A stretch of 64,000 bases of DNA, taken from positions 2,046,001 to 2,110,000 of the forward strand of contig NZ_CP126161.1 in NCBI RefSeq assembly GCF_030127105.1, written 5' to 3'. The first letter of the stretch is position 1. Each line of letters begins with the position of its first letter. This DNA comes from Haloarcula pelagica. GTDB lineage: Archaea; Halobacteriota; Halobacteria; Halobacteriales; Haloarculaceae. Position numbers and translations under genes: made by a program. The notes under the pieces are model-generated. The model had not been told where the DNA came from and did not search any database. It saw nothing but the letters and a program-made list of their open reading frames with translations. This document shows, piece by piece, positions 417 through 61,716 of this stretch.

Positions 417-1181
417 TTAGGCAACACTCCTGGATTCGATGACGATGCCGGTTCCCGACCGGACCGAGAACCCGATCGTGTCACCGACCTGCTCGCCCAT
501 CCCCGCGAACCGGAGGACGTTGATCTGGCGGCGCACGTCGTTGCCGACCTCGATCATCTCCAACTCGATGAACACGTCGGCGATGGCCCGGAACGGGCCG
601 ATGGCCTCCTCGTCGAGCGTCGAAGGGTCGACGGTCAACATCACGCATTTCCCCTGCGAGATCACGTCCCGGAAGTACGAGATGACCTCCAGGGCGGCCT
701 GGCGCTCCTCGTTCTGTCGGACCAGCGCCTCGAACTTGGGGTCGTTGCGGAGGATGGCGTCGAACGTGTCGATGATGACCACGTCGCTGTTCCACATCAC
801 GTCCGCCTCCATCAGCCGCTTGAGCAGTTCCTTGCGGTCTTCCTGGTCCTCGTTGGTGCCGGTCAGGGCGTTGGACTCGCCGATGTCGGCGTGGAGGAAC
901 AGGACGTTCTCGTCGAGGATGTGATCGACCATGTCGTACGACAGCGAGTGCATCTGATCGAGGAAGCTCCCGACGGTCAACTCCGTCGAGAGGTAGGTCA
1001 CGTCGATCCCCTCCTCACAGAGGCCGTAGGCGAACCGCTGGCTCATCGCGGACTTCCCGGCCCCGTAATCCCCCTCGACGAGGATGATACTGCCCGGCGG
1101 GATGCCCCCGCCCAGTTCCTTGTTCAGTCGGTCGTGATCGTCCAGTCCCAGCGAGAACAGATCGTTGCTTGCGATACTCAT
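417..1181 (-). CDS. arlH: Archaellum ATPase-like protein ArlH (FlaH)
   Basis: A 254-residue RecA/KaiC-fold ATP-binding protein. Walker A is GDYGAGKSA near residues 37-45 and the Walker B strand is [12 protein letters not shown] near residue 130. In archaea ArlH binds ATP and docks on ArlI to form the cytoplasmic motor with the ArlCDE ring. The start ATG at 1181 overlaps the end of arlG (stop at 1178) by four bases and arlI follows two bases after its stop, so translation is probably coupled through arlG-arlH-arlI. Length and motifs are normal for the family. Confidence 0.93.
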
Positions 1182-1648
1182 GTGCGGAACTCGAACACCT
1201 CCTCGTCACCGTTGACGATGACCTTCACACGGTGGTCACCGCCTGGCTGCCAGTTCGCCAGCGCCCCCGTCGAGATCTCCAGACGGACCACGTCGCCCGG
1301 GTCCCAGGACAGCCCGCCGTCCGGCATCAATCGCACGCTGTACGCGGTCGCGAACTCGCCGTCGACGAACACGTCGAGTTCGCCGGGATCGGCTGCCAGC
1401 CCCTCCGAACCGGTGTTTTTGACGTGCAGCGTGATGTTCCCGTTCCCGCTGCTGTCGTAGATCGCGCTGGAGCCGCTGTCGGAGATGATCTCGATGTCGG
1501 TGCGAACGTCGCTGCTGACATCCAGCCCCTGCTCGGAGACGGCGCTGCTCAACTGCCCGACGGTGTCGGTAAACACGCCGGCGACGCTGGCGGCGATCAT
1601 CATGGAGGCGATGAAGATGATCAGATGCGACACCGAGACGCTCGCCAT
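1178..1648 (-). CDS. arlG: Archaellum stator protein ArlG (FlaG)
   Basis: A 156-residue protein with one N-terminal membrane segment (about residues 5-27, beginning [15 protein letters not shown]) and a beta-rich extracytoplasmic domain. ArlG and ArlF are pseudo-periplasmic stator components; ArlG forms a filament capped by ArlF that contacts the S-layer. The gene starts one base after the arlF stop and overlaps arlH by four bases. The identity comes from the membrane-segment pattern and the fixed order arlF-arlG-arlH-arlI; primary sequence is weakly conserved in this family. Confidence 0.88.
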
Positions 1649-1649
1649 C

Positions 1650-2093
1650 TCAGGGCACCCCCGTCGAGGTCGCCGTCGCCTCGATGCCCGGCCCGGTGAC
1701 GAGTTTGACCCGTCCCGGGTCGGTGGTGAGCCCGGTCGCGTTGATCGTCAGGGTCTCGCCGGGGAGCCAGAGGTCGGTGGTCGTCGACCCGTCGACGGCG
1801 GTTCGGTAGCCGCTCAGATACCGGTCGTTCGCCAGCACGTCGACGGCCTCGACCGACAGCTCCGTCGAGCCCGTGTTGTCGACGGTGACGTTCAGGGAGT
1901 CGGCGGTGCCGTTGTAGACGACGGTCCGCAGTTCGATAGCGGTGTTTTGCTGTTCGAGGGTCTGGTCGGCGCTGGCGTCCCGGGCGTCGTTGACGTTCTC
2001 GAAGCTGTTGGCCGACGCGGTGTAGAACATCCCGAAGCCGATGAACGCGGCCACGAAGATCAGGGCCGCCGAGCCGCTAACGCTGAAGCCCAT
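1650..2093 (-). CDS. arlF: Archaellum stator protein ArlF (FlaF)
   Basis: A 147-residue single-pass membrane protein with an extracytoplasmic beta-sandwich-type domain; ArlF binds the S-layer and acts as part of the archaellum stator. The start is taken at 2093 (MGFSVSGSAALIFVAAFIGF), because this puts the hydrophobic segment at the very N terminus as in other ArlF proteins; an upstream in-frame ATG at 2150 would add an Arg/Ser-rich tail unlike the family. With this start it overlaps the 3' end of arlCDE by 17 bases, consistent with one transcript. Confidence 0.86.
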   Translation of the reverse strand: MGFSVSGSAALIFVAAFIGFGMFYTASANSFENVNDARDASADQTLEQQNTAIELRTVVYNGTADSLNVTVDNTGSTELSVEAVDVLANDRYLSGYRTAVDGSTTTDLWLPGETLTINATGLTTDPGRVKLVTGPGIEATATSTGVP

Positions 2094-3645
2094 CGGAACC
2101 ACCTCCACGGACGAGCTTCGAGAGCGCGACGCCCTCGGCCCCGCTGTCACCGTCGAGTTGCGAGATGTAGGTCAGACTCTCGGTGTGGTGGTCGATCGTC
2201 AGCGCCTCGCCGCTGTCGGCCACGTCGTCGAACCCCTGGAGGTACGTCCGCAGGTCCGCCGCGACGGAGGCGTCGATCCAGTCGATCGTCTCGTAGTAGT
2301 CGATGGCCCTGGTCGCCTCGTGGTAGCCCGACTCGCTGACCAGAAACTCCAGCCACTCGACGACGATGAGCTCCGACCCGAAGCCGTCGGGTAGGGTCGA
2401 CAGGTACGGTTTGCCGCCGTCGTCGGCCGACTCGTCCTCGGTGTCGGGCTCCGCTTCGGTCTCGGCCGAAGCCGTCGGTTCGGGCTCCGGCTCGGGTTCC
2501 GATGCGGTCGTCTCCTCGACGGCGATCGTCTCGTCCGCGTCGTCCTCGACCGTCGCTGCGTCGTCTTCGACTGCCGTGTCGTCGCCGTCGTCCTCCTCGA
2601 TGACCTCGTCGAAGAGGTCGTCGTCTTCGAGCCCTCCGTCGTCCATGGCGTCGCCGTCGTCTTCGAGCATCCCGTCGTCCATGGCGTCGTCGCCGAGCAT
2701 CTCGTCGCCGGCGTCGTCGAAGAGGTCCTCGTCGTCCTCGGGTTCCTCGCCGTCGGCCCACTCGGCGTCGCCGGACTCGTACTCGTCTTTCAGTTCGGCG
2801 AAGGACTTGCCGCCGTCCCCGCCGTCGTCACTCTCGTCGTCCATCTCCATGCCGTCGTCCTCCAGCCCGTCGTCCATACTCATGTCGTCGTCGAACGCTT
2901 CGTCGAACGTCCCGTCGCCGCCTCCGAAGTCGTCCCCCTCGTCCTCCGGGAACATCTCGTCGACATCGCCGCCACCGCCCATCCCCATGTCGCCACCGTC
3001 GTCCTCGACGAGGTCCTCGTCGAAAAAGCCCTCCGCGTCGGCGTTGGCGATGTCGTCGTCCAGTTCCGCCTCGTCGTCTCCGCCCTCGTCGTCGTCGAAC
3101 AGGCCGAACGAGCCCCCGCCGTCCATCCCGCCGCCCATCCCGGCGTCCACATCGTCCGCGAAGGGGTTCACCCCGCGCGTGACCATCTCGTAGATGTCCA
3201 GGAGCTTCCGGACGTTCTCCTCGACTTCCTCGACCGATTCGGAGATGCTCTCGTTTTCGGTCCGGACGGTGTTGACCGTCGAGGAGAGGCTGCCGACCTC
3301 GTTTTCCAGTTCGTCGAGCCGGTGTTCCAGTTCGTCGGTGTCGGCGCCGGTGGCGTCCTCCATGTCGCCGAACTCGTCGTCGCCGAACCCGCCCATCTCG
3401 TCGTCGCCGTCGTCGAAGCCGCCTAACCCACCCAGGTCGTCGCCGTCACCGCCTCCCTCCTCGGCCATCAGCCCGCCGCCGTCGGCCATCCCGTCGCCGT
3501 CGTCGTCGTCCTCGCTCTCGCTGTCCGACAGGATCGAGTCGAACATGTTCTTGATGCTCATCCCGACGAGACCGCCCGAGAGGAGCACCACGAGCGCTGG
3601 CGCGGCCAGCTCCGCGAGCGCCGTGGCGAGAGCGGGACTGTTCAT
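2077..3645 (-). CDS. arlCDE: Archaellum switch-complex protein of the ArlC/D/E family (FlaCE/FlaD-like) with a very acidic linker
   Basis: A 522-residue protein. The N terminus is hydrophobic (residues about 9-33), followed by a coiled-coil-like segment near residues 105-150. A long Asp/Glu/Gly/Met-rich low-complexity region covers roughly residues 160-400. The C-terminal domain (about 420-510, KPYLSTLPDGF...VEWLEFLV...IDYYETIDWI) is the FlaD/E domain. In haloarchaea ArlCDE form the cytosolic ring that receives CheY signals through CheF and couples to ArlH/ArlI. Only one gene of this family is seen here, whereas many haloarchaea have separate flaCE and flaD; another copy may lie elsewhere. 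It heads the arl operon, preceded by a TATC-N6-GATA palindrome at 3693. Confidence 0.85.
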   Translation of the reverse strand: MNSPALATALAELAAPALVVLLSGGLVGMSIKNMFDSILSDSESEDDDDGDGMADGGGLMAEEGGGDGDDLGGLGGFDDGDDEMGGFGDDEFGDMEDATGADTDELEHRLDELENEVGSLSSTVNTVRTENESISESVEEVEENVRKLLDIYEMVTRGVNPFADDVDAGMGGGMDGGGSFGLFDDDEGGDDEAELDDDIANADAEGFFDEDLVEDDGGDMGMGGGGDVDEMFPEDEGDDFGGGDGTFDEAFDDDMSMDDGLEDDGMEMDDESDDGGDGGKSFAELKDEYESGDAEWADGEEPEDDEDLFDDAGDEMLGDDAMDDGMLEDDGDAMDDGGLEDDDLFDEVIEEDDGDDTAVEDDAATVEDDADETIAVEETTASEPEPEPEPTASAETEAEPDTEDESADDGGKPYLSTLPDGFGSELIVVEWLEFLVSESGYHEATRAIDYYETIDWIDASVAADLRTYLQGFDDVADSGEALTIDHHTESLTYISQLDGDSGAEGVALSKLVRGGGSDGLQR

Positions 3646-3900
3646 TCTCTCTGAAAGATGTCCTCAGATACCCTTCAATATTCCGTCTAGCGTATCACGA
3701 GTGATAACTCTGGAGTTACTAGCCGCGCCCGTGGCTAAATTCAACGCGCCCGACTCCGAATAAATTTTTCGACCGTCGTTTCCGCTGGAAATATCCGGCC
3801 AACAGCGGATTGCGGACGCGCTCCCGTCAGCCAACTGACTGCCGTCCGTCAGACACGGAGCCGCGAGGAGTGACCGGTTCTGTTCGTCAGTTTTCAGAAA
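3646..3900. other. Intergenic promoter region of the arl operon
   Basis: About 255 bases between the arlCDE start and the cheD stop. It contains an AT-rich TATA candidate (CAATATT, 3676-3682, read on the minus strand) about 34 bases before the arlCDE start and the palindrome TATCAC-GA-GTGATA at 3693-3706. No coding potential was recognised. The cheD stop codon lies at the far end, so the arl operon probably has its own promoter rather than depending only on read-through from cheY-cheC-cheD. Confidence 0.55.
3693..3706. promoter_or_regulatory. TATC-N6-GATA palindrome upstream of arlCDE
   Basis: TATCACGAGTGATA, a perfect 6-2-6 inverted repeat. Its centre is about 20 bases upstream of the putative TATA box of the arl operon. 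The same TATC-N6-GATA spacing occurs at six other exact sites in the motility island, so it is interpreted as a shared operator. Function is inferred only from position and repetition. Confidence 0.6.
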
Positions 3901-4422
3901 TCACAACGTCGTCGACTCGGTGTTGGCGCTCTTGACGACGAGGTCGCCGCTGTCGGCCCTCAACTGGATCGAGCGACCGTGGTCGCCGCCGACATCCTCG
4001 CCGACGATCGGGATGTCGTACTCGTCGAGGGTCGCCCGGACCTGTTTCGCGTTCCGGGAGCCAATCGAGGAGCCGCTCTCCGAGAAGTCGAGCATGTCGC
4101 TCCCGCCGGCGATCTTGGCCTGCATCGAAGCCGTGCTCGCGCCAGCGGTTTCGAGCGCGTCGACGAGGGCCTCGACGCCGGTGTCGGCGAACTTCGCGCG
4201 GTTCCCGCCTTCGACATCTTCCGCGGTCGGGAGCATGACGTGGACGAGTCCCGCCGCACCGGTGGTCTCGTCGTACAGCGCCACGCCGATACACGATCCG
4301 AGCCCGCTCGTGGTCAGTACCGCCGAATCTGTCGTCACCTTGTACTCCGCGATGCCGACTTTGATCCGCTCGGGCGTGCTCTCCTGCTGTCCGTTCGTCT
4401 GGCTCCCGTCGTAGACTTTCAT
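3901..4422 (-). CDS. cheD: Chemoreceptor glutamine deamidase CheD
   Basis: A 173-residue protein starting MKVYDGSQ at 4422. CheD deamidates glutamines of chemoreceptors and in archaea also interacts with CheC and CheF-type adaptors. The nucleophile motif LTTSGLGSCIGVALYD lies near residues 38-53, with the conserved His in GLVHVMLP about 17 residues later, as expected for a papain-like deamidase. An upstream open frame extends further, but the start is fixed by the TAATG overlap with the cheC stop (4422-4424) and the family length. It is the last gene of the cheY-cheC-cheD unit. Confidence 0.93.
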   Translation of the reverse strand: MKVYDGSQTNGQQESTPERIKVGIAEYKVTTDSAVLTTSGLGSCIGVALYDETTGAAGLVHVMLPTAEDVEGGNRAKFADTGVEALVDALETAGASTASMQAKIAGGSDMLDFSESGSSIGSRNAKQVRATLDEYDIPIVGEDVGGDHGRSIQLRADSGDLVVKSANTESTTL

Positions 4423-5639
4423 TATTCGAAGATCTGTTCCACGCTGGCGTCCGTTTCGTCGGCTCGCTCGACATCCAGGTCGTCTAGTGCCGCCCGGAGT
4501 TCCTTCTCGTTGGGGAGTGCGTGAATCTCCGCAGCGAAGTCGACATCGGGGGTGTGCATCTCCGAGTCGATGATGAAGGCGTGCTCCTGGTGTTGACCGA
4601 CCTGTGCCGCCAGCGGATCGACGATGGCTCGACCCATGTCGTGGACGAGCCGCGGCGGCGTGTGATCGACCGAGGTCTGGAGGACGTTGGCCCATCCGTC
4701 GACGAACCCGCTGGTCATGATGTTGCCCAGCTCCTCGATCGCGGCCTTGTGCTGGTCGGTCAACTCGTCGCTGTCAATCTCGACGGGCATCATCGCCTCG
4801 GCGACGGTGACCGCCGACTCCTCGTCGAACAGCACCAGCAGGTACCCGCTGGGGACGCCGGTGAACTCGACGACGGTCCCGACGTAGGTTTCGGTCCCGA
4901 TCTGCTTTGGCACGTCGGTGATCGGGGCGAAACTGATCTGGGTCACCTCCGCCTCGGTCTGGATGCCGGTCATCATCTCGACGTTGCTGGCGGCCTGTTC
5001 GGTCCCGCTCTCGGTCATCTCGTTGAACGTCTCCAGCTTGTCGATCGGGATGGCGTCGCCGTCGGTGTCGGCGTTCGACATCATCGTCTCCGTGAGCGAC
5101 TCGTACTCGGGGAGCATGTAGATGTAGAAGTTCACCGACTCGTTGACCCACTCGATCTCGGACTTGAAGACGAACACCTGATCGTGGGCGTCGTGTTCGG
5201 GTGCCTCGGGCAACACGTCGGCGCCCGACTTCTCGATGTATTCGGGCGGGGAGTGGTCGATCGTCGCACCCAGATAGTCGGCCCAGCCGTCGATGAAGCC
5301 GCTCATCATGATGTTGCCGATCTCCTCGACGCCGCTCTGTGCCATCGCCGCGTCGCTCGCACCGCCGGGGACCAGCGTCTCGACCATGGTGTCTGCCGAG
5401 TCGGCGTCGAAGACCAACACCGTCTCCCCGTCCATGACGCCCTCGAAGTCGAACTGGACGCCGACGAAGTCTCTCCCCTTCAGTTCCTCGCCCACGTCGG
5501 CCCGCGGGACGAGCGTGATCTTCGTCACGTCGACGCTGGCGTCGATCCCCGTCATCTGGGACATCGACGCCGTCGCCTGCTGTGCCCCCTCGTGTGCGAG
5601 TTGGTTGAACGTGCCGAGCGACTGGATCTCGACGTTCAT
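4422..5639 (-). CDS. cheC: Double-domain CheC-type CheY-P phosphatase
   Basis: A 405-residue protein made of two tandem CheC domains, each carrying the phosphatase helix: GVEEIGNIMMSGFIDGWADY in the first (about residues 100-120) and AIEELGNIMTSGFVDGWANV in the second (about 305-325). The E-x2-N pair in each is the signature for CheY-P dephosphorylation. Single-domain CheC is about 200 residues, so this is a tandem duplication within one gene. It lies between cheY and cheD with essentially no spacing, and CheD is a known CheC partner. Acidic composition is typical of haloarchaea. Confidence 0.92.
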   Translation of the reverse strand: MNVEIQSLGTFNQLAHEGAQQATASMSQMTGIDASVDVTKITLVPRADVGEELKGRDFVGVQFDFEGVMDGETVLVFDADSADTMVETLVPGGASDAAMAQSGVEEIGNIMMSGFIDGWADYLGATIDHSPPEYIEKSGADVLPEAPEHDAHDQVFVFKSEIEWVNESVNFYIYMLPEYESLTETMMSNADTDGDAIPIDKLETFNEMTESGTEQAASNVEMMTGIQTEAEVTQISFAPITDVPKQIGTETYVGTVVEFTGVPSGYLLVLFDEESAVTVAEAMMPVEIDSDELTDQHKAAIEELGNIMTSGFVDGWANVLQTSVDHTPPRLVHDMGRAIVDPLAAQVGQHQEHAFIIDSEMHTPDVDFAAEIHALPNEKELRAALDDLDVERADETDASVEQIFE

Positions 5640-5999
5640 CTATGAGGGCACAACGTCCTCGATCGCCTCCATCACGCTCGGTTTCTGGAACGGTTTGGTG
5701 ATGTAGCCGTCGGCGCCGGCCTTGACGGCCTCTTTCATCTTCTCTTCCTGGCCGACGCTCGTACACATGATCACGTTGGCCTCGGGGTTCGAGGTCTTGA
5801 TCTCGTCGGTGGCCTCGATGCCGTCCCGGATCGGCATGACGATGTCCATCATCACCAGGTCCGGTGTCTCCTCTTTGTACACTTCGACGGCTTCGACGCC
5901 GTTTTCGACCTCGCCAACGATGTTGTGGTCTTCCTCCAGAATCTCGCGCAGGAGGTTGCGCATAAATTCGGAGTCGTCGGCTATCAGTACGTCTGGCAT
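5640..5999 (-). CDS. cheY: Chemotaxis response regulator CheY
   Basis: A 119-residue single receiver domain. It shows the acidic pair DD at residues 8-9, phospho-acceptor D52 in LVMMDIVMP, the switch Thr/Ser region (CTSVG) and the conserved Lys in GYITKPF. CheY-P made by CheA binds CheF and the archaellum switch to reverse rotation. The gene starts at 5999, ends one base before cheC starts, and is the first gene of cheY-cheC-cheD. Its promoter has a clear TATA box (TAAATAAAG, 6030-6038, acting on the minus strand) and a TATC-N6-GATA palindrome at 6052. Confidence 0.96.
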   Translation of the reverse strand: MPDVLIADDSEFMRNLLREILEEDHNIVGEVENGVEAVEVYKEETPDLVMMDIVMPIRDGIEATDEIKTSNPEANVIMCTSVGQEEKMKEAVKAGADGYITKPFQKPSVMEAIEDVVPS

Positions 6000-6051
6000 G
6001 ACTTATCGAACCGAAATACCGGAATGAGCTAAATAAAGGTGTCCCGTAAAT

Positions 6052-6065
6052 TATCGCGTCTGATA
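6052..6065. promoter_or_regulatory. TATC-N6-GATA palindrome upstream of cheY
   Basis: TATCGCGTCTGATA, centred about 24 bases upstream of the cheY TATA box (TAAATAAAG at 6030-6038). Spacing and half-sites match the sites before the archaellin genes. It lies just outside the 3' end of the convergent-side membrane protein gene, in otherwise short intergenic DNA. Regulatory role is inferred. Confidence 0.6.
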
Positions 6066-6084
6066 CCGCACTACGTGAGGGGTT

Positions 6085-8040
6085 TCAGACCGTCGGCAGT
6101 CCGGCCGCGACGGCCCGGACGACAGGGAGCGCGTAGCGGCCGTACGGGAAGTATACGAACGCCGACACCACGACGTAGGAGATGCCGACGCCGACCGTCG
6201 CCGTCCCAGCGACGGCCACCAGTCGCCCGGACACCCGTTCCGGGGTGACGGTTCGAGCGATCACCGCGACCGCCCAACCGGCCGCAGACAGGAGCGCGAC
6301 GACCGCGTGCAGTTGTACCGCCTCCCCGACGGCGAGCGCCAGGGTCGTGATCGCACCGAGCATCCCGGCGCTGACCAGGCCGGTCCAGCCGACCGTGGCA
6401 ACCGCCAGGAACCGCCGGCCCCCGTCGAGTCCCGCCCGGACTGCCGGGAGCCGGACGGCCGCGTAAACGAGCAGCGGGAGTACCGGGTGGAGGTATCGGA
6501 CCGTGAGCTGGCTGAAAAGCGGGAGCCGCGAGAGGTAGACCACCGTCAACACTGCCGCCAGGGTACAGACGAGCAGGTCCGTCTGTCCGACGGGCGTGAG
6601 CGTCCACGGACGAGCGAGCGATCGAACCCGCTCGGCCCGACCGCGAACCCGACGAGCCGCAAGCAGCGGGAGCGCAGCGACGGCGCCGGCGACCGGCATC
6701 GCCTCCAGCAACGCCAGCTCTACGACCTCGTACCCGTTGATGTCGTAGCTGAGGCCGTCGATCCGCCCGCTCCGGAGGAAGATATCGACCAGTCGGTCGG
6801 GCTTGCCCAGGACGCCGAGCCCGTCGACGACCGACCGCCCGGCGAACTCGTAGACGAAGCCGACCAGTGTCGCCACTGCACCGATCGCACGTGTCGGGAC
6901 CGACGGGCCGGACTGCCCACCGCCCGGACGCGGTGTCGCCGGGGACGCGGCTCCGCCGTCGGCCTGGCCACCGCCCGACGCCCCCGACCCGCCCGTGTCA
7001 GTGGCCTCGGCGTTCGGTAACACCCTCGGGGGCTCGACCGGGTTCCCCGAGATGGCGTAGTTCGTCGCCAGCATCGGCGTCAGCGCCAGGAGGACGACGA
7101 GCCCGACGAGCAGGAGGTGACGCGGCCGCCGTGAGCCGCCGGTCAGGAGGTCGACACCGGTCAGGACGACGACGAGAAAGAACCCCTCGAAGGCGTGGGT
7201 CCAGGTGACCAGTCCAGCCAGCGCGTACGCGCCGGTTCGGGCACGCAGTGCTGTCCGCCCCTCGCTGTGGCAGCTGACTGCGAACGCGTAGACGACGCCG
7301 ACGGTCATCGCCGCGACGAGGGTGTGTCGCTTCGGGATCGTCGCCCAGAACCCCACCGGCGTGGCAAGCCCCGTCACCAGGGCCGCCGCCAGCCCCGCTC
7401 GTCTGTCGTGGACGAGCGAGACGAGCCGGTACAGCAGGAGACACAGCGTCGCGGCCGCCAGTAGCGTCGACAGTTGGTACCCGACCAGCGCGAGCCGAGT
7501 GGGGTCAAGGTCCGTCGCCGCCCGCAGCGACGCGACGAACAACGCGGCGACCGCCACCGACCCGACTGTGAGCGTCCGGTCGCGGTCGAACCACTCCAGC
7601 CCGGCTATCGTCCGAACGAACGCGAGCCCGCCCAGCGCCCACAACCCCGGGAGCAGTACCCCCGGATCGACGACCCCCGCGATCGCTTCGAGCCCCCAGA
7701 CGAACGGGAGAGCGAGCGCGAGCTGGCCGTAGTTACGGCCGTACAGCCGCCCGCCGACCTCGTGCATTCCCGGGAGCGGGCCCAGCGACAGCGAGTAGCG
7801 CACCTCCGTGACGTGGAGCTGGCCGTTCGAGAGCGCGACGAGCGTGTTCGCCGTCGTGTACGTATCCTGAATGAAAAACCCCACACGCCAGGTCAGCCCG
7901 AACGCCAGGGCGAGCCCAAGCCAGAGCGCCAGCCCGTAGCGGTCGCCGAACACCCACCGTCCGCCTCGGCGGAGCAGGCTGCGAAGGCGGTCGGTCGACA
8001 GGCGGCCGCCGGCCGGCCCCGCCCCGGGGACGCCTGTCAC
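6085..8040 (-). CDS. Polytopic membrane protein, possible GT-C-like glycosyltransferase (cassette A)
   Basis: A 651-residue protein with roughly 12 hydrophobic segments. It is clearly paralogous to the protein at 19215-21158. Shared motifs in order are FGDR before the first membrane segment, FF..D.Y..ANTLVA just after it, YGRNY, TPVGFWATIPKRH, NPVEPPR.LP and TVRYLHP. An invariant Asp in the first external loop with many membrane helices resembles GT-C glycosyltransferases, but I do not recognise a named family and this is inference. Its start overlaps the upstream exported-protein gene by four bases, so both are co-translated. Between residues about 340 and 390 there is a Gly/Ala/Pro-rich variable loop. 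Confidence 0.7.
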   Translation of the reverse strand: MTGVPGAGPAGGRLSTDRLRSLLRRGGRWVFGDRYGLALWLGLALAFGLTWRVGFFIQDTYTTANTLVALSNGQLHVTEVRYSLSLGPLPGMHEVGGRLYGRNYGQLALALPFVWGLEAIAGVVDPGVLLPGLWALGGLAFVRTIAGLEWFDRDRTLTVGSVAVAALFVASLRAATDLDPTRLALVGYQLSTLLAAATLCLLLYRLVSLVHDRRAGLAAALVTGLATPVGFWATIPKRHTLVAAMTVGVVYAFAVSCHSEGRTALRARTGAYALAGLVTWTHAFEGFFLVVVLTGVDLLTGGSRRPRHLLLVGLVVLLALTPMLATNYAISGNPVEPPRVLPNAEATDTGGSGASGGGQADGGAASPATPRPGGGQSGPSVPTRAIGAVATLVGFVYEFAGRSVVDGLGVLGKPDRLVDIFLRSGRIDGLSYDINGYEVVELALLEAMPVAGAVAALPLLAARRVRGRAERVRSLARPWTLTPVGQTDLLVCTLAAVLTVVYLSRLPLFSQLTVRYLHPVLPLLVYAAVRLPAVRAGLDGGRRFLAVATVGWTGLVSAGMLGAITTLALAVGEAVQLHAVVALLSAAGWAVAVIARTVTPERVSGRLVAVAGTATVGVGISYVVVSAFVYFPYGRYALPVVRAVAAGLPTV

Positions 8041-56594: not shown

Positions 56595-57026
56595 ATGGCA
56601 CCCGAGCACGTCCTCGTCCCCCTGGACGGGTCGCCGCTGGCCGACGCGGCGCTGACACACGCACTGGAGACGTTCGACTGTCGCGTCACCGTCCTGAACG
56701 TCGTGACACCGCTCGACGACGGGATGAGCGAGGGCGGCGTCGTCGGCGCCGGCGAGCGCCGCCAGCGGCAGGCCCACGACCGTGCCCGGACGCTCGTCGA
56801 TCGGGCCAGGACGGCGGCCAGCGCGGCCGATCGAGACGTGGAGACGGCCGTCGAGACCGGCGACCCGGCCGAGACGATCCTCGCGTTCGTCGACGGAAAC
56901 GCCGTCGATCACGTCGTCATGGGCGGGCACGGACGGACCGATCCGTCCCTCGTCGACCGACTCCTCGGGACCGTCGCGACGGCCGTCGTCAGCGAGGCGC
57001 CGGTGACCGTCACCGTCGTCAGGTAA
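56595..57026 (+). CDS. Universal stress protein UspA family
   Basis: A 143-residue single UspA domain. It opens with HVLVPLDGSPLADAAL, and the ATP-binding signature is the C-terminal GGHGRTDPSLVDRLLGTVAT (G-x2-G-x9-G-type), so it is probably of the ATP-binding subgroup. The ATG at 56595 is set by the TATA-like element upstream; the longer frame is rejected. Its last eight bases overlap the end of the convergent Pit transporter gene, a common pairing of Usp domains with transporters in haloarchaea. Confidence 0.92.
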   Translation: MAPEHVLVPLDGSPLADAALTHALETFDCRVTVLNVVTPLDDGMSEGGVVGAGERRQRQAHDRARTLVDRARTAASAADRDVETAVETGDPAETILAFVDGNAVDHVVMGGHGRTDPSLVDRLLGTVATAVVSEAPVTVTVVR

Positions 57027-58230
57027 CGCCCAGCGCGGTCGCGAGCACGCGATAGAGGCCGAAGCCGATGCCGACCGACGTGCCGAGCGTCAGCACCCAG
57101 AACGTCAGCGTCACGCCGATCTTCCGCCGGGAGACGCCGGTCGATCCCGCCGCGAGTCCGCCGCCGATGACCCCGGAGATGATGATGTTGTTGAACGAGA
57201 TCGGGATTCCCAGCGCGATCGCCACCTGTGCGATGACGAACCCGGGGACCAGCGCCGCGATCGATCGACGGATTCCCAGCTGTGCGTACTCCCGCGAGGT
57301 CGCCTGGAGGAGCCGCGGCGCGCCCATCCACGCGCCCGCGAGGATCCCGCTCGCACCGATCGCCAGCAGCGCGACCCCCGGCAGCCCCAGTTCGACCCGG
57401 TAGAGGTTCTCCAGGGGCCCGGTGGCCAGTCCCACCTGACTCCCGCCACTGGAGAACGCGACGACGCTCCCCAGTGCGACCAGGAACGTCTTCACGCCGC
57501 GGTCGATCGAGTCGAGCGTCCGGCGGCGGATGAACGCGAACCCGCCGAGTGCGGCGAGCAGCGTCGCCGCGAGCACGTCCAGTTCGAGGCCGGCGACCGC
57601 CGGCGTCGTCACGAACCGTCCGAGAAAGCCCGCCAGCGACGCCTGTGTCTCCCCCGGCGCTGCGGGGATGACACTCAACTGGACGTTGGCGACGATCCCG
57701 CTGACCACTGCCGCCAGTGCCGGGACGCTGACAGTTTCGGGGATATCGTCCCGACGCAACAGCGTCGCCGTCAGGTACGCCAGCCCGCCCGAGACCGGCG
57801 GGACCAGGACCCAAAACAGGAGGATCTCCCGGTACGTGTCGTACACCGGCGCCCCGCCCAGTGAGAGACCGACGCCGACCATCGCCCCGGTCGTCGCGAA
57901 GGCCGCCGGGACTGGATAGCCCGAGTACACCCCGAAGGCCATGAACGCCGTCGCGGTCAGCAGGCCCGCCGTCGCGGCAAGCGAGGTGATCGGCTCTCCC
58001 GCGATCAGTCCCGACCCGACCGTCTCCGAGATGCTTCCCCCCTGGGTGAGCGCGCCCAGCGCGGCCAGGATTCCGATGAGAAACGCCGCCCGCATCGTCG
58101 AGATGGCGTTGGCGCCGATCGCCGGGGCAAAAGGCGGCGAGTTGCTGTTGGCACCCAGTGCCCAGGCGGTTCCCAGCCCCGTCAGCGTCGCCAGGCCGAC
58201 CAACACCCAAAAGCCCAGCGTCGCCATCAC
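57019..58230 (-). CDS. Inorganic phosphate transporter, Pit family
   Basis: A 403-residue integral membrane protein with about ten segments. The Pit signature GANSNSPPFAPAIGANAIST follows the first helix (about residues 27-46) and the matching second-half signature is ISFNNIIISGVIGGGLAAG. It is a low-affinity phosphate symporter, or possibly sulfate in some branches. Starts at ATG 58230 and 58227 are both possible (MM). The 3' end overlaps uspA by eight bases. Confidence 0.92.
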   Translation of the reverse strand: MMATLGFWVLVGLATLTGLGTAWALGANSNSPPFAPAIGANAISTMRAAFLIGILAALGALTQGGSISETVGSGLIAGEPITSLAATAGLLTATAFMAFGVYSGYPVPAAFATTGAMVGVGLSLGGAPVYDTYREILLFWVLVPPVSGGLAYLTATLLRRDDIPETVSVPALAAVVSGIVANVQLSVIPAAPGETQASLAGFLGRFVTTPAVAGLELDVLAATLLAALGGFAFIRRRTLDSIDRGVKTFLVALGSVVAFSSGGSQVGLATGPLENLYRVELGLPGVALLAIGASGILAGAWMGAPRLLQATSREYAQLGIRRSIAALVPGFVIAQVAIALGIPISFNNIIISGVIGGGLAAGSTGVSRRKIGVTLTFWVLTLGTSVGIGFGLYRVLATALGVT

Positions 58231-58363
58231 GGACCCACCCTGGTGACGCAGTCGAACCTGTGTTCCATTGGCGTGCTATTCGGCCGCCGGGCGAAAAGCG
58301 TTCGTGCCGTGAGGCCCCATCCCGATAGGCTAAAGGGCGACACCACAGAACGCACGTACACAG

Positions 58364-58467
58364 GGGCCCTTAGCTTAGTCTGGTTAAAGCGATCGGCTCA
58401 TATCGTCGGCGGGCCTCCGCTGGCGTGGGAAACCGATTGAGCGCTGGTTCAAATCCGGCAGGGCCCA
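58364..58467 (+). tRNA. tRNA with anticodon CAU (probably elongator tRNA-Met) containing a 29-nt intron
   Basis: Acceptor GGGCCCT (58364-58370) pairs with AGGGCCC (58460-58466), discriminator A58467. D stem GCTT/AAGC; anticodon stem ATCGG (58392-58396) with CCGAT (58433-58437); loop CT-CAT-A; T stem GCTGG/CCGGC with TTCAAAT loop. The intron is 58403-58431, between positions 37 and 38. It folds as a perfect bulge-helix-bulge: bulge TA|T, four-base-pair helix C97-A100 with T126-G129, bulge AA|A, then a nine-base-pair hairpin (last three digits of positions). Archaeal elongator tRNA-Met is the usual intron carrier with CAU in haloarchaea; tRNA-Ile2(CAU) cannot be excluded. Not an initiator, since the anticodon stem lacks GGG/CCC. 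TATA-like GGCTAAAGG lies about 30 bases upstream. Confidence 0.95.
58403..58431 (+). other. tRNA intron with canonical bulge-helix-bulge
   Basis: A 29-nt intron at position 37/38. A hairpin of nine base pairs (58404-58412 with 58417-58425, loop GCCT) forms its body. The cleavage positions within the two three-base bulges fit the archaeal splicing endonuclease. The intron is short compared with the 75-nt intron I recall in Haloferax elongator tRNA-Met. Confidence 0.88.
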
Positions 58468-58504
58468 TCGAACACCCCGAGCGAAGCGAGCGTGTGTGAG
58501 AGAA

Positions 58505-58520
58505 CTGCCGGATTTGAACC
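58505..58520 (-). repeat. Inverted copy of the tRNA T-arm
   Basis: CTGCCGGATTTGAACC is the exact reverse complement of 58446-58461 (16 of 16 bases), which is the T arm and start of the acceptor 3' strand. It lies 38 bases after the tRNA and is followed by a hairpin CAGAC...GTCTG (58525-58545). It appears to be a displaced tRNA fragment. Confidence 0.75.
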
Positions 58521-58550
58521 CCGGCAGACGAACGCAGTGAGTCTGCAGAC

Positions 58551-58575
58551 GGTTCACAGTCCGGCAGGGCCCATC
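58551..58575 (+). repeat. Direct partial copy of the tRNA 3' end
   Basis: GGTTCACAGTCCGGCAGGGCCCATC repeats the tRNA 3' end 58446-58469 with one extra base and two changes; the last 16 bases, including four beyond the mature end, are identical to 58454-58469. Duplicated tRNA 3' ends are typical attachment-site remnants of integrative elements. No integrase gene is present nearby, so this would be a scar. Confidence 0.6.
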
Positions 58576-58740
58576 CAGTTCCGCCGTCACGACGAGACGC
58601 TCACCCTGACAGGTGACAACCTCACCGTTCTGGACCACGATCGAGAGTGAGCACCGATCACGGCGTCGCAGCACAGGGAACTCGGGATGTGGTGACTCCC
58701 GGACGAGCCATCGTTCGAACACGGACTGCCTGGTGCTCGG

Positions 58741-58751
58741 ATCGGATTTAT
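58741..58751 (+). repeat. 11-base direct repeat, left copy
   Basis: ATCGGATTTAT, repeated at 58953-58963. The pair brackets the most AT-rich part of the island. Confidence 0.5.
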
Positions 58752-58938
58752 GGAGATAAGTAGGACAAATATAAAAACATATTCGAAGATTTATCCAAAT
58801 ATGTGGTTGTAATCGGGGTTATAGTATCGTATATGCGTTCGAAAGAAAGAAAAGCCGTGGTATGTGTCCCTATATACAAGATTGAAATATAAAACTCGAA
58901 AATTGGCTATCGATCTCTCACGAGGTCCGACTACTGAG

Positions 58939-58955
58939 GATTTCGTGACGAAATC
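58939..58955. repeat. Inverted repeat GATTTCG-TGA-CGAAATC
   Basis: Perfect seven-base arms around TGA; a candidate protein-binding site or small hairpin upstream of the sph3-like gene. Confidence 0.45.
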
Positions 58956-58963
58956 GGATTTAT
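58953..58963 (+). repeat. 11-base direct repeat, right copy
   Basis: ATCGGATTTAT, identical to 58741-58751. Confidence 0.5.
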
Positions 58964-59104
58964 TCGGATCCGAGTTAGCGTTCGCTCGTAGCTATTCCAA
59001 ATAAATAACGGAAGTACGTGTGTTATCCATATCGGTCTGTGCGGATCTGTTGGCGGGCGATGGAATGGTTTTTTATTGTCGGGCCCAAGGACGGAGGTAT
59101 GGGC

Positions 59105-61057
59105 ATGTCTCAACAGTCCACTGATGTCGCACACTTTCAGGTCGAGAACATCGGTGGAATCGGCGAGACCAGCGTCGACATCCCGCCGGGTGTGACGGTT
59201 CTCACGGGCAAGAACGCGACGAACCGTACCTCGTTTCTCCAGTCGATCATGGCGGCGATGGGGAGCGACCAGGCGACACTGAAAGGCGACGCCGACACGG
59301 GCAGTGTCGAACTGTCGATCGGCGGCGAGTCGTACGAACGGCGGCTGAAACGGACCGGCGGCACCGTCCAGTTCGAGGGCGAGAGCTACCTCGACGATCC
59401 GGCGGTCGCGGACGTGTTCGCGTTCCTCCTGGAGACCAACGAGGCACGCCGGTCGGTCGCGCGCGGCGACGACCTGCGCGAGATCATCATGCGACCGGTG
59501 GATATCGACGAAATAAAGCGAGATATCCGGCAGCTCGAAGAACAAAAAGGCGAAATAAACGACGAAATAGCCAAGATAGAGTCGAGAAAGCGGGACCTTC
59601 CCGACCTCGAACAGCGACGGGGCGATATTAGAGACAGTATCTCCGAGAAGCGAGATCAGCTAGCCGAAAAAGAAGACGAAATCGACTCGAACAGTCGCGA
59701 TATCGAGGAGAGTCGGAAAGAACAGGAAGAGCTTGAAGCGAAGCTCGACGAACTCCGGTCGACACGGTCGGATCTGGAGTCGGTTCGTCGCCAGATCGAG
59801 ACCCAGGAGGAGAGCATCTCCTCGCTACAGCAGGAACGCCAGGAGCTCGACTCGGAGCTCGCGGAGCTGCCCGAGACGCCGATGGGCGAACACCAGCATC
59901 TCGACGACGAGATCGGCCGCCTGCGCGAGCAACGCCAGTCGCTCAACACCGAGATCTCCGACCTGCAGAGTCTCATCCAGTACAACGAGGAGCGCCTCGA
60001 AGAGGGGGACTACGGCGTCGTCCAGTCGCTCGACGACGAGCAGGAGGCGACGGCCGACGCCGTCACCGACCAACTGCTGGCCGACGACGAGGAGTCGGTC
60101 GTCTGCTGGACGTGTGGCTCGACGGTCGAACGGGAACAGATCGAGGAGACGGTCACCCGGTTGCAGGACCTGCGCCGGGAGAAAGTCGAGGCGCTCAACG
60201 AGCTCAAGTCCGAACTGGACGACCTCAAGAGCCAACAGCGCGAGGCCGAACAGCAACAGCGGCGCCGTGACGACGTTCAAGGACAGATCGAGGACATCGA
60301 GACCGAGCTAGAACGGCGCGAGGAACAGATCGAGTCGCTGAAAGAGCGCCGCGAGTCGCTCACCGACGAGGTCGAGTCCCTAGAGACCGAAGTCGACAAC
60401 CTCGAATCCGAGGACTTCGACGACATCCTCTCCCTGCACAAGGAGGCCAACCAACTGGAGTTCGAGATCGACAGTCTGGAGTCGGACCTCGATTCGGTCA
60501 CCGACGAGATCGAGGAGATCGAGGCGATGCTGGACCGGGCCGACGACCTCCGGGCCGAGCGTGACGAACTGGTCGACCAGCTCACCGACAAGCGGACGAA
60601 GATCGACCAGATCGAGGCCGGCGCCGTCGAGGAGTTCAACGAGCACATGGACGCGATCCTCGACATCATGGAGTACGAGAACCTCGAACGGATCTGGATC
60701 GAGCGGGTCGAACGGACCGTCCGTGAGGGGCGCCAGAAGGTCGACAAGACGGCCTTCGAGCTCCACATCGTCCGGACGACCGAGAACGGGGCGGCCTACG
60801 AGGACACCATCGAACACCTGAGCGAGAGCGAACGGGAGGTGACCGGACTCATCTTCGCGCTGGCGGGGTATCTCGTCCACGACCTCCACGAGATCGTGCC
60901 GTTCATGCTGCTCGACTCGCTGGAGGCGATCGACTCGAACCGGATCGCCGAACTGGTCGAGTACTTCTCGGACTACGCACAGTACCTCGTCGTGGCGCTG
61001 CTGCCCGAGGACGCACAGGCGCTGGACGAGGAGTTCCACCGCATCACGTCGATCTGA
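59105..61057 (+). CDS. Archaea-specific SMC-related protein (Sph3-like)
   Basis: A 650-residue SMC/Rad50-like protein. The N-terminal ATPase half (VENIGGIGETSVDIPPG) has a degenerate Walker A GKNATNRTSF (about residues 36-45). A long coiled coil runs from about 135 to 540 with a central CWTC motif (about residue 334) like a Rad50 zinc hook. The C-terminal half has the signature-like LSESEREVTG and Walker-B-like FMLLDSLEAID. In Haloferax the sph3-rdfA pair affects rod/disk shape (from memory). A GGAGGT sequence seven bases before ATG 59105 supports this start; ATG 59099 is also possible because of a TATA box (59068-59077). Confidence 0.88.
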   Translation: MSQQSTDVAHFQVENIGGIGETSVDIPPGVTVLTGKNATNRTSFLQSIMAAMGSDQATLKGDADTGSVELSIGGESYERRLKRTGGTVQFEGESYLDDPAVADVFAFLLETNEARRSVARGDDLREIIMRPVDIDEIKRDIRQLEEQKGEINDEIAKIESRKRDLPDLEQRRGDIRDSISEKRDQLAEKEDEIDSNSRDIEESRKEQEELEAKLDELRSTRSDLESVRRQIETQEESISSLQQERQELDSELAELPETPMGEHQHLDDEIGRLREQRQSLNTEISDLQSLIQYNEERLEEGDYGVVQSLDDEQEATADAVTDQLLADDEESVVCWTCGSTVEREQIEETVTRLQDLRREKVEALNELKSELDDLKSQQREAEQQQRRRDDVQGQIEDIETELERREEQIESLKERRESLTDEVESLETEVDNLESEDFDDILSLHKEANQLEFEIDSLESDLDSVTDEIEEIEAMLDRADDLRAERDELVDQLTDKRTKIDQIEAGAVEEFNEHMDAILDIMEYENLERIWIERVERTVREGRQKVDKTAFELHIVRTTENGAAYEDTIEHLSESEREVTGLIFALAGYLVHDLHEIVPFMLLDSLEAIDSNRIAELVEYFSDYAQYLVVALLPEDAQALDEEFHRITSI

Positions 61058-61098: not shown

Positions 61099-61716
61099 AT
61101 GGCAGACACACCGGACGATCGGCCAGCGAGCAAGGTCGCACGCCTCATCGACGAGTACGGACTGGAGGGACTCGGGGCCGACCTGGAAGCACGCTGGACG
61201 GGCGAGGGCGTCGAGCGGATGAGCCTCCGTGACCTCGCGGAGTTTTTCAACAAGCGGCTGCTCGAACAGGCGTTGCTCGACGCCGGGTTGAGCGCCCTCG
61301 AAAGCGATGTCCGGACGACGTACGAGAACCTCACCGGCGACGATGTCAGTACCGGTGTCAGGACCGACGCCCGGACCCGCCTCGAACGGAACGGGATCGA
61401 TGTCGACGACCTGGAACGGGACTTCGTCACCTATCAGGCGATCAGATCGTACCTCAAGGAGTGGCGCGGCGCGGAGTACGAGGGGCTGAGCGATCAGGAG
61501 AAAATCGAGAAAGACCTAGAGAGCATCCAGCGGCTGATGACCCGGACGCTCTCGGTCACGGAGGAGCGGATCGAGAAGCTCCGGGACACGGACCGGATCG
61601 ACATCGACGAGTTCGAGGTGTTCCTCGACGCGCAAGTCCTGTGCCAGCAGTGCGGGACACAGTACTCGGTCGCCGAGTTCCTCGAACAGGGCGGCTGTCC
61701 CTGCCAACAGGCGTAA
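61099..61716 (+). CDS. rdfA: Rod-determining factor RdfA
   Basis: A 205-residue protein matching the haloarchaeal RdfA family: ASKVARLIDEYGLEGLGADLEARWTG at the N terminus (partly quoted), MSLRDLAEFFNKRLL, a helical middle, and a C-terminal Cys-rich end CQQCGTQYSVAEFLEQGGCPC that looks like a zinc ribbon. RdfA is needed for rod shape in Haloferax volcanii. It follows the sph3-like gene by about 40 bases, the arrangement known from Haloferax. Confidence 0.9.
   Translation: MADTPDDRPASKVARLIDEYGLEGLGADLEARWTGEGVERMSLRDLAEFFNKRLLEQALLDAGLSALESDVRTTYENLTGDDVSTGVRTDARTRLERNGIDVDDLERDFVTYQAIRSYLKEWRGAEYEGLSDQEKIEKDLESIQRLMTRTLSVTEERIEKLRDTDRIDIDEFEVFLDAQVLCQQCGTQYSVAEFLEQGGCPCQQA

What the first reader, a model, noticed from the sequence alone, without database searches (positions are those of the whole stretch)
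58446..58575. Scrambled copies of the tRNA 3' end just downstream of the gene
A 16-base exact inverted copy (58505-58520) and a 25-base near-exact direct copy (58551-58575) of the T arm/acceptor lie within 110 bases. Direct copies of tRNA 3' ends are what integrative elements leave; the inverted copy is harder to explain and points to repeated rearrangements at this site.
Basis: partly seen in the sequence, partly recalled or inferred. Interest (0 to 1): 0.5.

Follow-up and report, generated by a model that had tools for sequence, protein, structure and literature searches.

The report
Hairpin cassettes behind haloarchaeal tRNA genes
The odd repeats after this tRNA gene are one copy of a hairpin-bearing repeat unit, present in most of the salt-loving archaea examined, that sits right behind many kinds of tRNA gene, carries an inverted and a direct copy of that tRNA's own tail, can form rows of several units, and differs in presence between related species.

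Summary
The repeats are real, but they are not scrambled debris of one locus. Window 58468-58573 is one unit of an order-wide haloarchaeal repeat class: tRNA 3' end - small hairpin (H1) - inverted T-arm copy - imperfect hairpin (H2) - direct copy of the tRNA 3' end. In the window's genome 17 of 43 tRNA genes have a direct and/or inverted copy within 300 nt downstream (8 have both), none upstream. The H2 pattern occurs in 149 of 195 order genomes but 1 of 163 others in the phylum; 104 of 106 judgeable hits in a named-genome scan lie just behind a tRNA gene. The inverted copy matches its own tRNA (236 of 265; shuffled maximum 190). Polarity is fixed (98 same, 0 opposite), and the tRNA-sense strand folds better than the antisense. 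An empty site, tandem arrays and chimeric units point to gain, loss and recombination. I favour small non-coding cassettes using the short tRNA-tail core of haloarchaeal integrases. The enzyme, any movement and transcription are not shown; an RNA role in the pre-tRNA trailer is a serious rival. My paper searches found no description.

The parts
58364..58467 (+). tRNA gene with anticodon CAU (probably tRNA-Ile2; isotype not tested); intron of 29 nt by length comparison with 75-nt intronless orthologues
   Evidence: RF00005 57.6 bits; orthologues of 75 nt without and 104-106 nt with the intron
58446..58467 (+). source sequence: end of T-stem 5' strand, T loop, T-stem 3' strand, acceptor 3' strand, discriminator
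58468..58504 (+). H1 segment (small hairpin between the tRNA end and the inverted copy)
   Evidence: fold; same place in other units
58505..58520 (-). inverted copy of the T arm, 16 of 16 nt
58521..58550 (+). H2 hairpin; GCAGAC/GTCTGC stem, two pairs changed on both sides in the orthologue of G001 (L005)
58551..58573 (+). direct copy of the tRNA 3' end; 58551-58559 altered T loop, 58560-58573 exact (16 nt exact to 58575)

Best explanation
The feature is one unit of a haloarchaeal class of small non-coding cassettes anchored to tRNA 3' ends. Shown: unit layout, own-tRNA matching of both copies, fixed polarity, near-confinement to the place behind tRNA genes, order-wide spread, tandem arrays, an empty site and recombinant units. 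Inferred: cassettes were inserted at the T-stem/acceptor core (about 13-15 nt, plus T loop), probably by a tRNA-targeting tyrosine recombinase supplied in trans, with the inverted and right-hand T arms folding on one strand as part of the attachment site; each insertion restores the tRNA and leaves its old 3' end downstream, and arrays then grow, shrink and exchange modules by recombination between repeated parts.
For: Copies picked by the last 13 nt match their tRNA up to the discriminator and fall to near background beyond it and before the T loop (291 copies). A core of about 13-15 nt (T-stem 3' strand plus acceptor, by eye) also ends the integrase-bearing elements in L127 and L183 and the larger insertions in L035 and L046. 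Units lie behind tRNA genes in 39 of 40 pattern-picked loci and in 104 of 106 judgeable loci of a named-genome scan. Empty site in G017 against its relative G004, chimeric units in G021 and G006 (by eye); tandem duplications. Fixed orientation 98 to 0. Precedent: in L217 (Bifidobacterium phasiani) and viral contig L146 a palindrome of inverted plus direct tRNA 3' half lies about 60 nt from a PF00589 integrase gene.
Against: No recombinase is tied to the units: homologues of one haloarchaeal integrase (the only query used) lie in 3 of 230 loci, next to a unit with no tRNA directly before it, and those elements do not end in H2 (by eye). This unit has no blastn match in phage or plasmid records; pattern scans of viral contigs gave none or six contigs of the bifidobacterial kind. 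Where the right copy has changed, the inverted copy is nearer to the tRNA than to its neighbour (27 to 6, 2 ties), which an attachment-site hairpin alone does not predict. Recombination between repeats can explain much of the array change without any recombinase. Better folding of the sense strand also fits RNA.
Confidence: 0.5

Rival explanations
1. RNA element of the pre-tRNA trailer: the unit is transcribed with the tRNA; the inverted copy can pair with the tRNA's own T arm or with the downstream copy, a three-part switch acting on folding, processing or termination.
For: tRNA-sense strand folds better than antisense (H2 mean -3.62 kcal/mol, 199 to 51; shuffled -0.61, 144 to 106); wobble-keeping changes exceed the mirror changes in the inverted copy (35 of 838 sites against 18 of 1547, first nine positions); the inverted copy follows the tRNA rather than the right copy; 3 of 26 pairs changed on both sides among 3 orthologues; one hairpin from a coding region stopped 59% of transcripts in a Haloferax volcanii reporter test (PMC7237163, passages).
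Against: Does not by itself explain copies of the acceptor 3' strand, tandem arrays, patchy presence and the empty site; 26 of 43 and 22 of 44 tRNA genes have no copy at all; no transcript data were available.
Confidence: 0.27
2. Remnants of larger integrative elements: attL/attR ends left after the interior was lost.
For: Direct copies at tRNA 3' ends; larger elements sit at such tRNA genes.
Against: Units are regular in order, spacing and polarity at many isotypes; in pattern-picked hits nearly all H2 modules lie close behind the tRNA; the few large elements seen do not end in H2 (by eye).
Confidence: 0.12
3. Mutational by-product: template switching at the tRNA hairpin makes inverted and direct copies locally, and repeated copies then recombine.
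For: Explains why both copies match the local tRNA; arrays show tandem duplication and fusion.
Against: H2 sequence families recur at many isotypes and in several families of the order (by eye); near-absence elsewhere in the phylum; fixed polarity and sense-strand folding.
Confidence: 0.09

Closest known systems
attachment sites of tRNA-targeting tyrosine integrases of haloarchaea (SNJ2 family and relatives)
   Same: use of the tRNA 3' end as core; a core of 13-14 nt is described for SNJ2 (PMC8371274, section 17 read), close to the part shared by unit copies and integrated elements here
   Different: units are mostly about 70-170 nt long, code for nothing obvious, carry an inverted T arm and H2, and stand in tandem at many tRNA isotypes
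integron cassette arrays with folded attC sites
   Same: row of units at one anchor, each closed by an imperfect hairpin of fixed polarity with inverted outer arms and a variable tip (comparison from recall)
   Different: no integron integrase sought, no cassette genes seen, anchor is the tRNA itself, the sense strand rather than the attC bottom strand (recalled) is the better folder
REP/BIME, MITE and PATE type palindromic repeats
   Same: short, non-coding, palindromic, dispersed; PATEs are described in Haloquadratum (PMC3119063, passages)
   Different: sit behind tRNA genes and carry tRNA-specific copies
palindromic attP-like site beside a bifidobacterial integrase gene
   Same: inverted plus direct tRNA 3' sequence around a hairpin
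   Different: single palindrome about 60 nt from an integrase gene, arms reach toward the anticodon stem; no array behind a tRNA gene seen there

Membership tests
integrase attachment site / integrated element at a tRNA | direct copy of the tRNA 3' end that restores the gene | tested here: met
   copies picked by the last 13 nt match up to the discriminator and not beyond (291 copies)
integrase attachment site / integrated element at a tRNA | integrase gene on the element, or a parent element with the same ends | tested here: not met
   one integrase query: homologues in 3 of 230 loci, elements without H2 ends; other integrase kinds not searched
integrase attachment site / integrated element at a tRNA | presence/absence with intact empty site | tested here: met
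   tRNA-Gln locus, G017 against G004
integrase attachment site / integrated element at a tRNA | excision or circular form | not testable with these tools
   needs DNA from cells
integron cassette array | integron integrase gene with attI | not tested
   no search for IntI was made; anchor is a tRNA
integron cassette array | hairpin sites of fixed orientation with inverted arms | tested here: met
   98 same, 0 opposite, 9 without tRNA; fold
integron cassette array | cassettes carry genes | tested here: not met
   first H2 module starts 32-106 nt behind the tRNA in 38 of 39 loci with a tRNA, +196 in the other; itself looked only at bodies up to 200 nt
structured RNA family | base pairs kept by double changes | tested here: inconclusive
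   3 of 26 pairs changed on both sides in 3 orthologues, 4 pairs broken in one of them; inverted arm follows the T loop
structured RNA family | known Rfam family | tested here: not met
   only tRNA found in window 57000-60000 and in 5 array loci
structured RNA family | transcribed | not testable with these tools
   no RNA data

The most novel reading that the evidence does not exclude
A gene-less, integron-like cassette system of archaea: tRNA T arms act as the anchor site, each cassette ends in a folded single-strand site whose arms are tuned to the host tRNA, and an unknown haloarchaeal recombinase inserts and shuffles them, with the tRNA restored each time. Two woesearchaeal tRNA-Ser genes with the same layout would make it wider than haloarchaea.
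Probability: 0.18. Interest if true: 0.85.

Novelty: new variant of a known kind. Interest (0 to 1): 0.6.

Why it matters
It turns a local oddity into a repeat class that marks 17 of 43 and 22 of 44 tRNA genes in the two haloarchaeal genomes surveyed fully and occurs across the order, bears on how integrating viruses and plasmids meet tRNA genes, and can be tested: Haloferax species carry units. If the cassettes move, an unknown recombination system is to be found; if they act in RNA, a large class of tRNA-linked regulators is.

Tried and rejected
Rejected: chance. Rejected: purely local rearrangement. Weakened: correction of the inverted copy by its right neighbour (one search was an earlier version biased toward the tRNA). 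Looked for and not found: this unit's DNA in phage and plasmid records (blastn), the window's H2 type in viral contigs, an Rfam family, a description in print (searches; listings with titles and starts of abstracts, plus passages of PMC3119063, PMC8371274 and PMC7230728; subscription papers are mostly not in that library; the 2018 SNJ2 integrase paper was not held). Searches (bifidobacterial attP; integrons in archaea) were read as listings only. A casposon-like target duplication was considered (PMC4046053, passages: casposon targets overlap 4-7 nt of tRNA 3' ends) and not pursued.

Weak points of my counts: searches use loci fetched mostly because they hold units or tRNA genes, so their totals are not frequencies; unbiased frequencies are those (two genomes). 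At the cut-offs only 8 of 43 and 8 of 44 tRNA genes have both copies. Rows are related by descent and some loci overlap between calls, so p-values are only guides. Units were defined by a direct copy with few mismatches and, a body of 20-200 nt. Shuffled sequences also lean slightly to the sense strand (-0.61 and -0.66 kcal/mol, p 0.01 and 2e-4). anchors on the last 13 nt, so identity there is by choice; specificity inside the T loop rests mainly on one position (0.86 against 0.68). One search used narrow expressions (one family matched nothing) and did not leave out the 8 non-haloarchaeal loci. In one search, 19 of 30 loci gave a tRNA-Gln; 11 did not (other gene, or tRNA outside the expression). 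One search was replaced, because two family-specific positions dominated it. One search used a single integrase query. One locus without a tRNA behind its unit (L292) was not followed up.

Full report
What is there. A tRNA(CAU) gene with a 29-nt intron lies at 58364-58467. Behind it come a small hairpin, an exact 16-nt inverted copy of its T arm (58505-58520), a second hairpin and a direct copy of its 3' end, exact over 58560-58575. The stretch folds better than all 200 shuffles (z -4.05).

It is a class, not an accident. A search of 60 relatives with this stretch returned many partial hits to the downstream part. Of 20 such places that I fetched, 17 lie within 300 nt behind a tRNA gene on the same strand, of many isotypes; in L035 and L046 other DNA of 7.1 and 2.3 kb stands between, and in L033 no tRNA was found before it. 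All tRNA genes of two genomes were then examined, 300 nt on each side. A copy of the last 13 nt (at most 1 mismatch) and/or an 11-nt inverted T arm (at most 1 mismatch) lies downstream of 17 of 43 tRNA genes in G000 (both: 8) and 22 of 44 in G012 (both: 8); upstream 0 of 43 and 1 of 44, the one being a tandem tRNA-Asp duplicate. With 16 nt and up to 4 mismatches the inverted copy lies downstream of 11 of 43 and 13 of 44, upstream of 0 and 1, and in none of the shuffled flanks.

Spread. The pattern GGATTTGAA-N25-60-TTCAAATCC occurs in 149 of 195 genomes of the order (55 of 66 genera); its reversed control occurs in none. In a draw over the phylum 28 of 196 match: 27 of the 33 from the order and 1 of the 163 others (my count of its rows). 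The pattern only sees one T-loop type and so undercounts. Of 40 loci picked from the printed rows of those calls without regard to tRNA genes, 39 lie behind a tRNA gene on the same strand; the first H2 module found starts 32-106 nt from it in 38 and at 196 nt in one, and one array shows five modules. Of the 112, 104 are within 700 nt of a tRNA gene, 6 lie too near the end of the stretch to judge, 2 (L267, L292) have none. Some of these loci are the same places as. Both Woesearchaeota hits lie behind a predicted tRNA-Ser with the same layout.

Anatomy. From fetched loci (enriched for units) 294 units were found behind 203 tRNA genes out of 330 tRNA genes scanned; 272 have an inverted copy (class I). 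A second form has only the T-stem 3' strand and acceptor as direct copy, behind a plain hairpin (by eye). Copies picked only by their last 13 nt match their tRNA up to the discriminator and drop to near background right after it and before the T loop (291 copies). The inverted copy repeats the four variable T-loop bases of its own tRNA in 236 of 265 units (shuffled mean 176, maximum 190); for tRNA genes with an uncommon T loop 33 of 43 are exact and 2 show the common type instead. Where the right copy has changed, the inverted copy is nearer to the tRNA in 27, to the right copy in 6, equal in 2 of 35 units. H2 modules fall into sequence families found at many isotypes, in one orientation: 98 with the tRNA, 0 against, 9 without a tRNA within 700 nt.

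Dynamics. The tRNA-Gln locus, seen in 19 of 30 fetched loci, has 0 to 2 units with a well-kept direct copy, plus decayed ones; in G017 the tRNA is followed directly by the sequence that in G004 (91% identical over the shared downstream part) follows the last copy; different H2 modules stand on the same H1; G021 and one unit of G006 join the left arm of one H2 family to the right arm of another (by eye). Other arrays show tandem duplication of multi-unit blocks (L182, L158).

Which strand. RNA folding energy of the tRNA-sense strand is lower than that of the antisense strand for H2 (252 distinct, mean difference -3.62 kcal/mol, 199 to 51) and H1 (267, -1.53, 196 to 70); shuffled sequences lean the same way but little (-0.61 and -0.66). 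In the first nine positions of the inverted copy A-to-G and C-to-T changes, which keep G-U pairs with the T arm, exceed the mirror changes (35 of 838 against 18 of 1547 sites). So the sense strand, as RNA or as single-strand DNA, is the better folder. At the window's own locus two H2 stem pairs changed on both sides between G000 and G001; of 26 predicted pairs in three orthologues 3 have such a change and 4 are broken in one sequence.

Link to integrases. With one integrase as query (L267: PF00589 and PF02899), homologues were found in 3 of 230 loci: L267 itself, L183 (two) and L127. In each an integrase gene stands next to a tRNA-end copy followed by a unit, with no tRNA gene directly before it, as if an element had inserted between tRNA and unit; the element ends show no H2 (by eye). 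The tRNA-end copy is about 13-15 nt in L183 and L127 and takes in the T arm in L267. In Bifidobacterium phasiani (L217) and viral contig L146 a palindrome made of an inverted plus a direct tRNA 3' half lies about 60 nt from a PF00589 integrase gene, so such a site can serve, or at least accompany, an integrase.

Judgement. That the finding is one member of this class is close to certain. How units arise is open. Cassettes using the integrase core explain direct copies, the empty site and arrays best; the RNA reading explains the inverted copy's loyalty to the tRNA and the sense-strand folding best; both may be true. I found no description in print in the searches named under Tried and rejected.

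Noticed in passing
window 58399-58434 and L003-L032: The intron of this tRNA(CAU) gene is polymorphic in the genus: genes of 104-106 nt with intron in G000, G014, G007, G002, G008, G010, G011, genes of 75 nt without it in the other genus members printed; intron borders not determined.
   Followed up: partly
window 59099-61057: Archaea-specific SMC-related protein (NCBIfam NF045487, 693.8 bits) starts about 0.5 kb behind the unit; the following 205-aa frame (61099-61716) had no NCBIfam match.
   Followed up: no
L035 (G010), about 590-7700: An insertion of about 7.1 kb between tRNA(CAU) and its unit with frames resembling a two-gene AbiE-like pair and a helicase (recalled resemblance, no family scan); I recognised no integrase among the frames of at least 120 aa.
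   Followed up: no
L143-L148, L213, L214, L217: Six viral contigs, two named Bifidobacterium genomes and one Verrucomicrobia contig carry a near-perfect palindrome of a tRNA 3' half; a PF00589 integrase gene lies about 60 nt away in the two examined, L146 and L217.
   Followed up: partly
L201, L235: Woesearchaeota: the same tRNA - inverted T arm - hairpin - direct copy layout behind predicted tRNA-Ser genes.
   Followed up: partly
right-hand copies in many units: The T loop of the right copy is altered in recurring ways (TTCACAAT; TTC to TGA) that by eye go with certain H2 families.
   Followed up: no
H2 families: One H2 family seems to keep a tandem G-A mismatch inside its stem, others a T-T mismatch, suggesting recognition of a folded strand (read by eye).
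   Followed up: no
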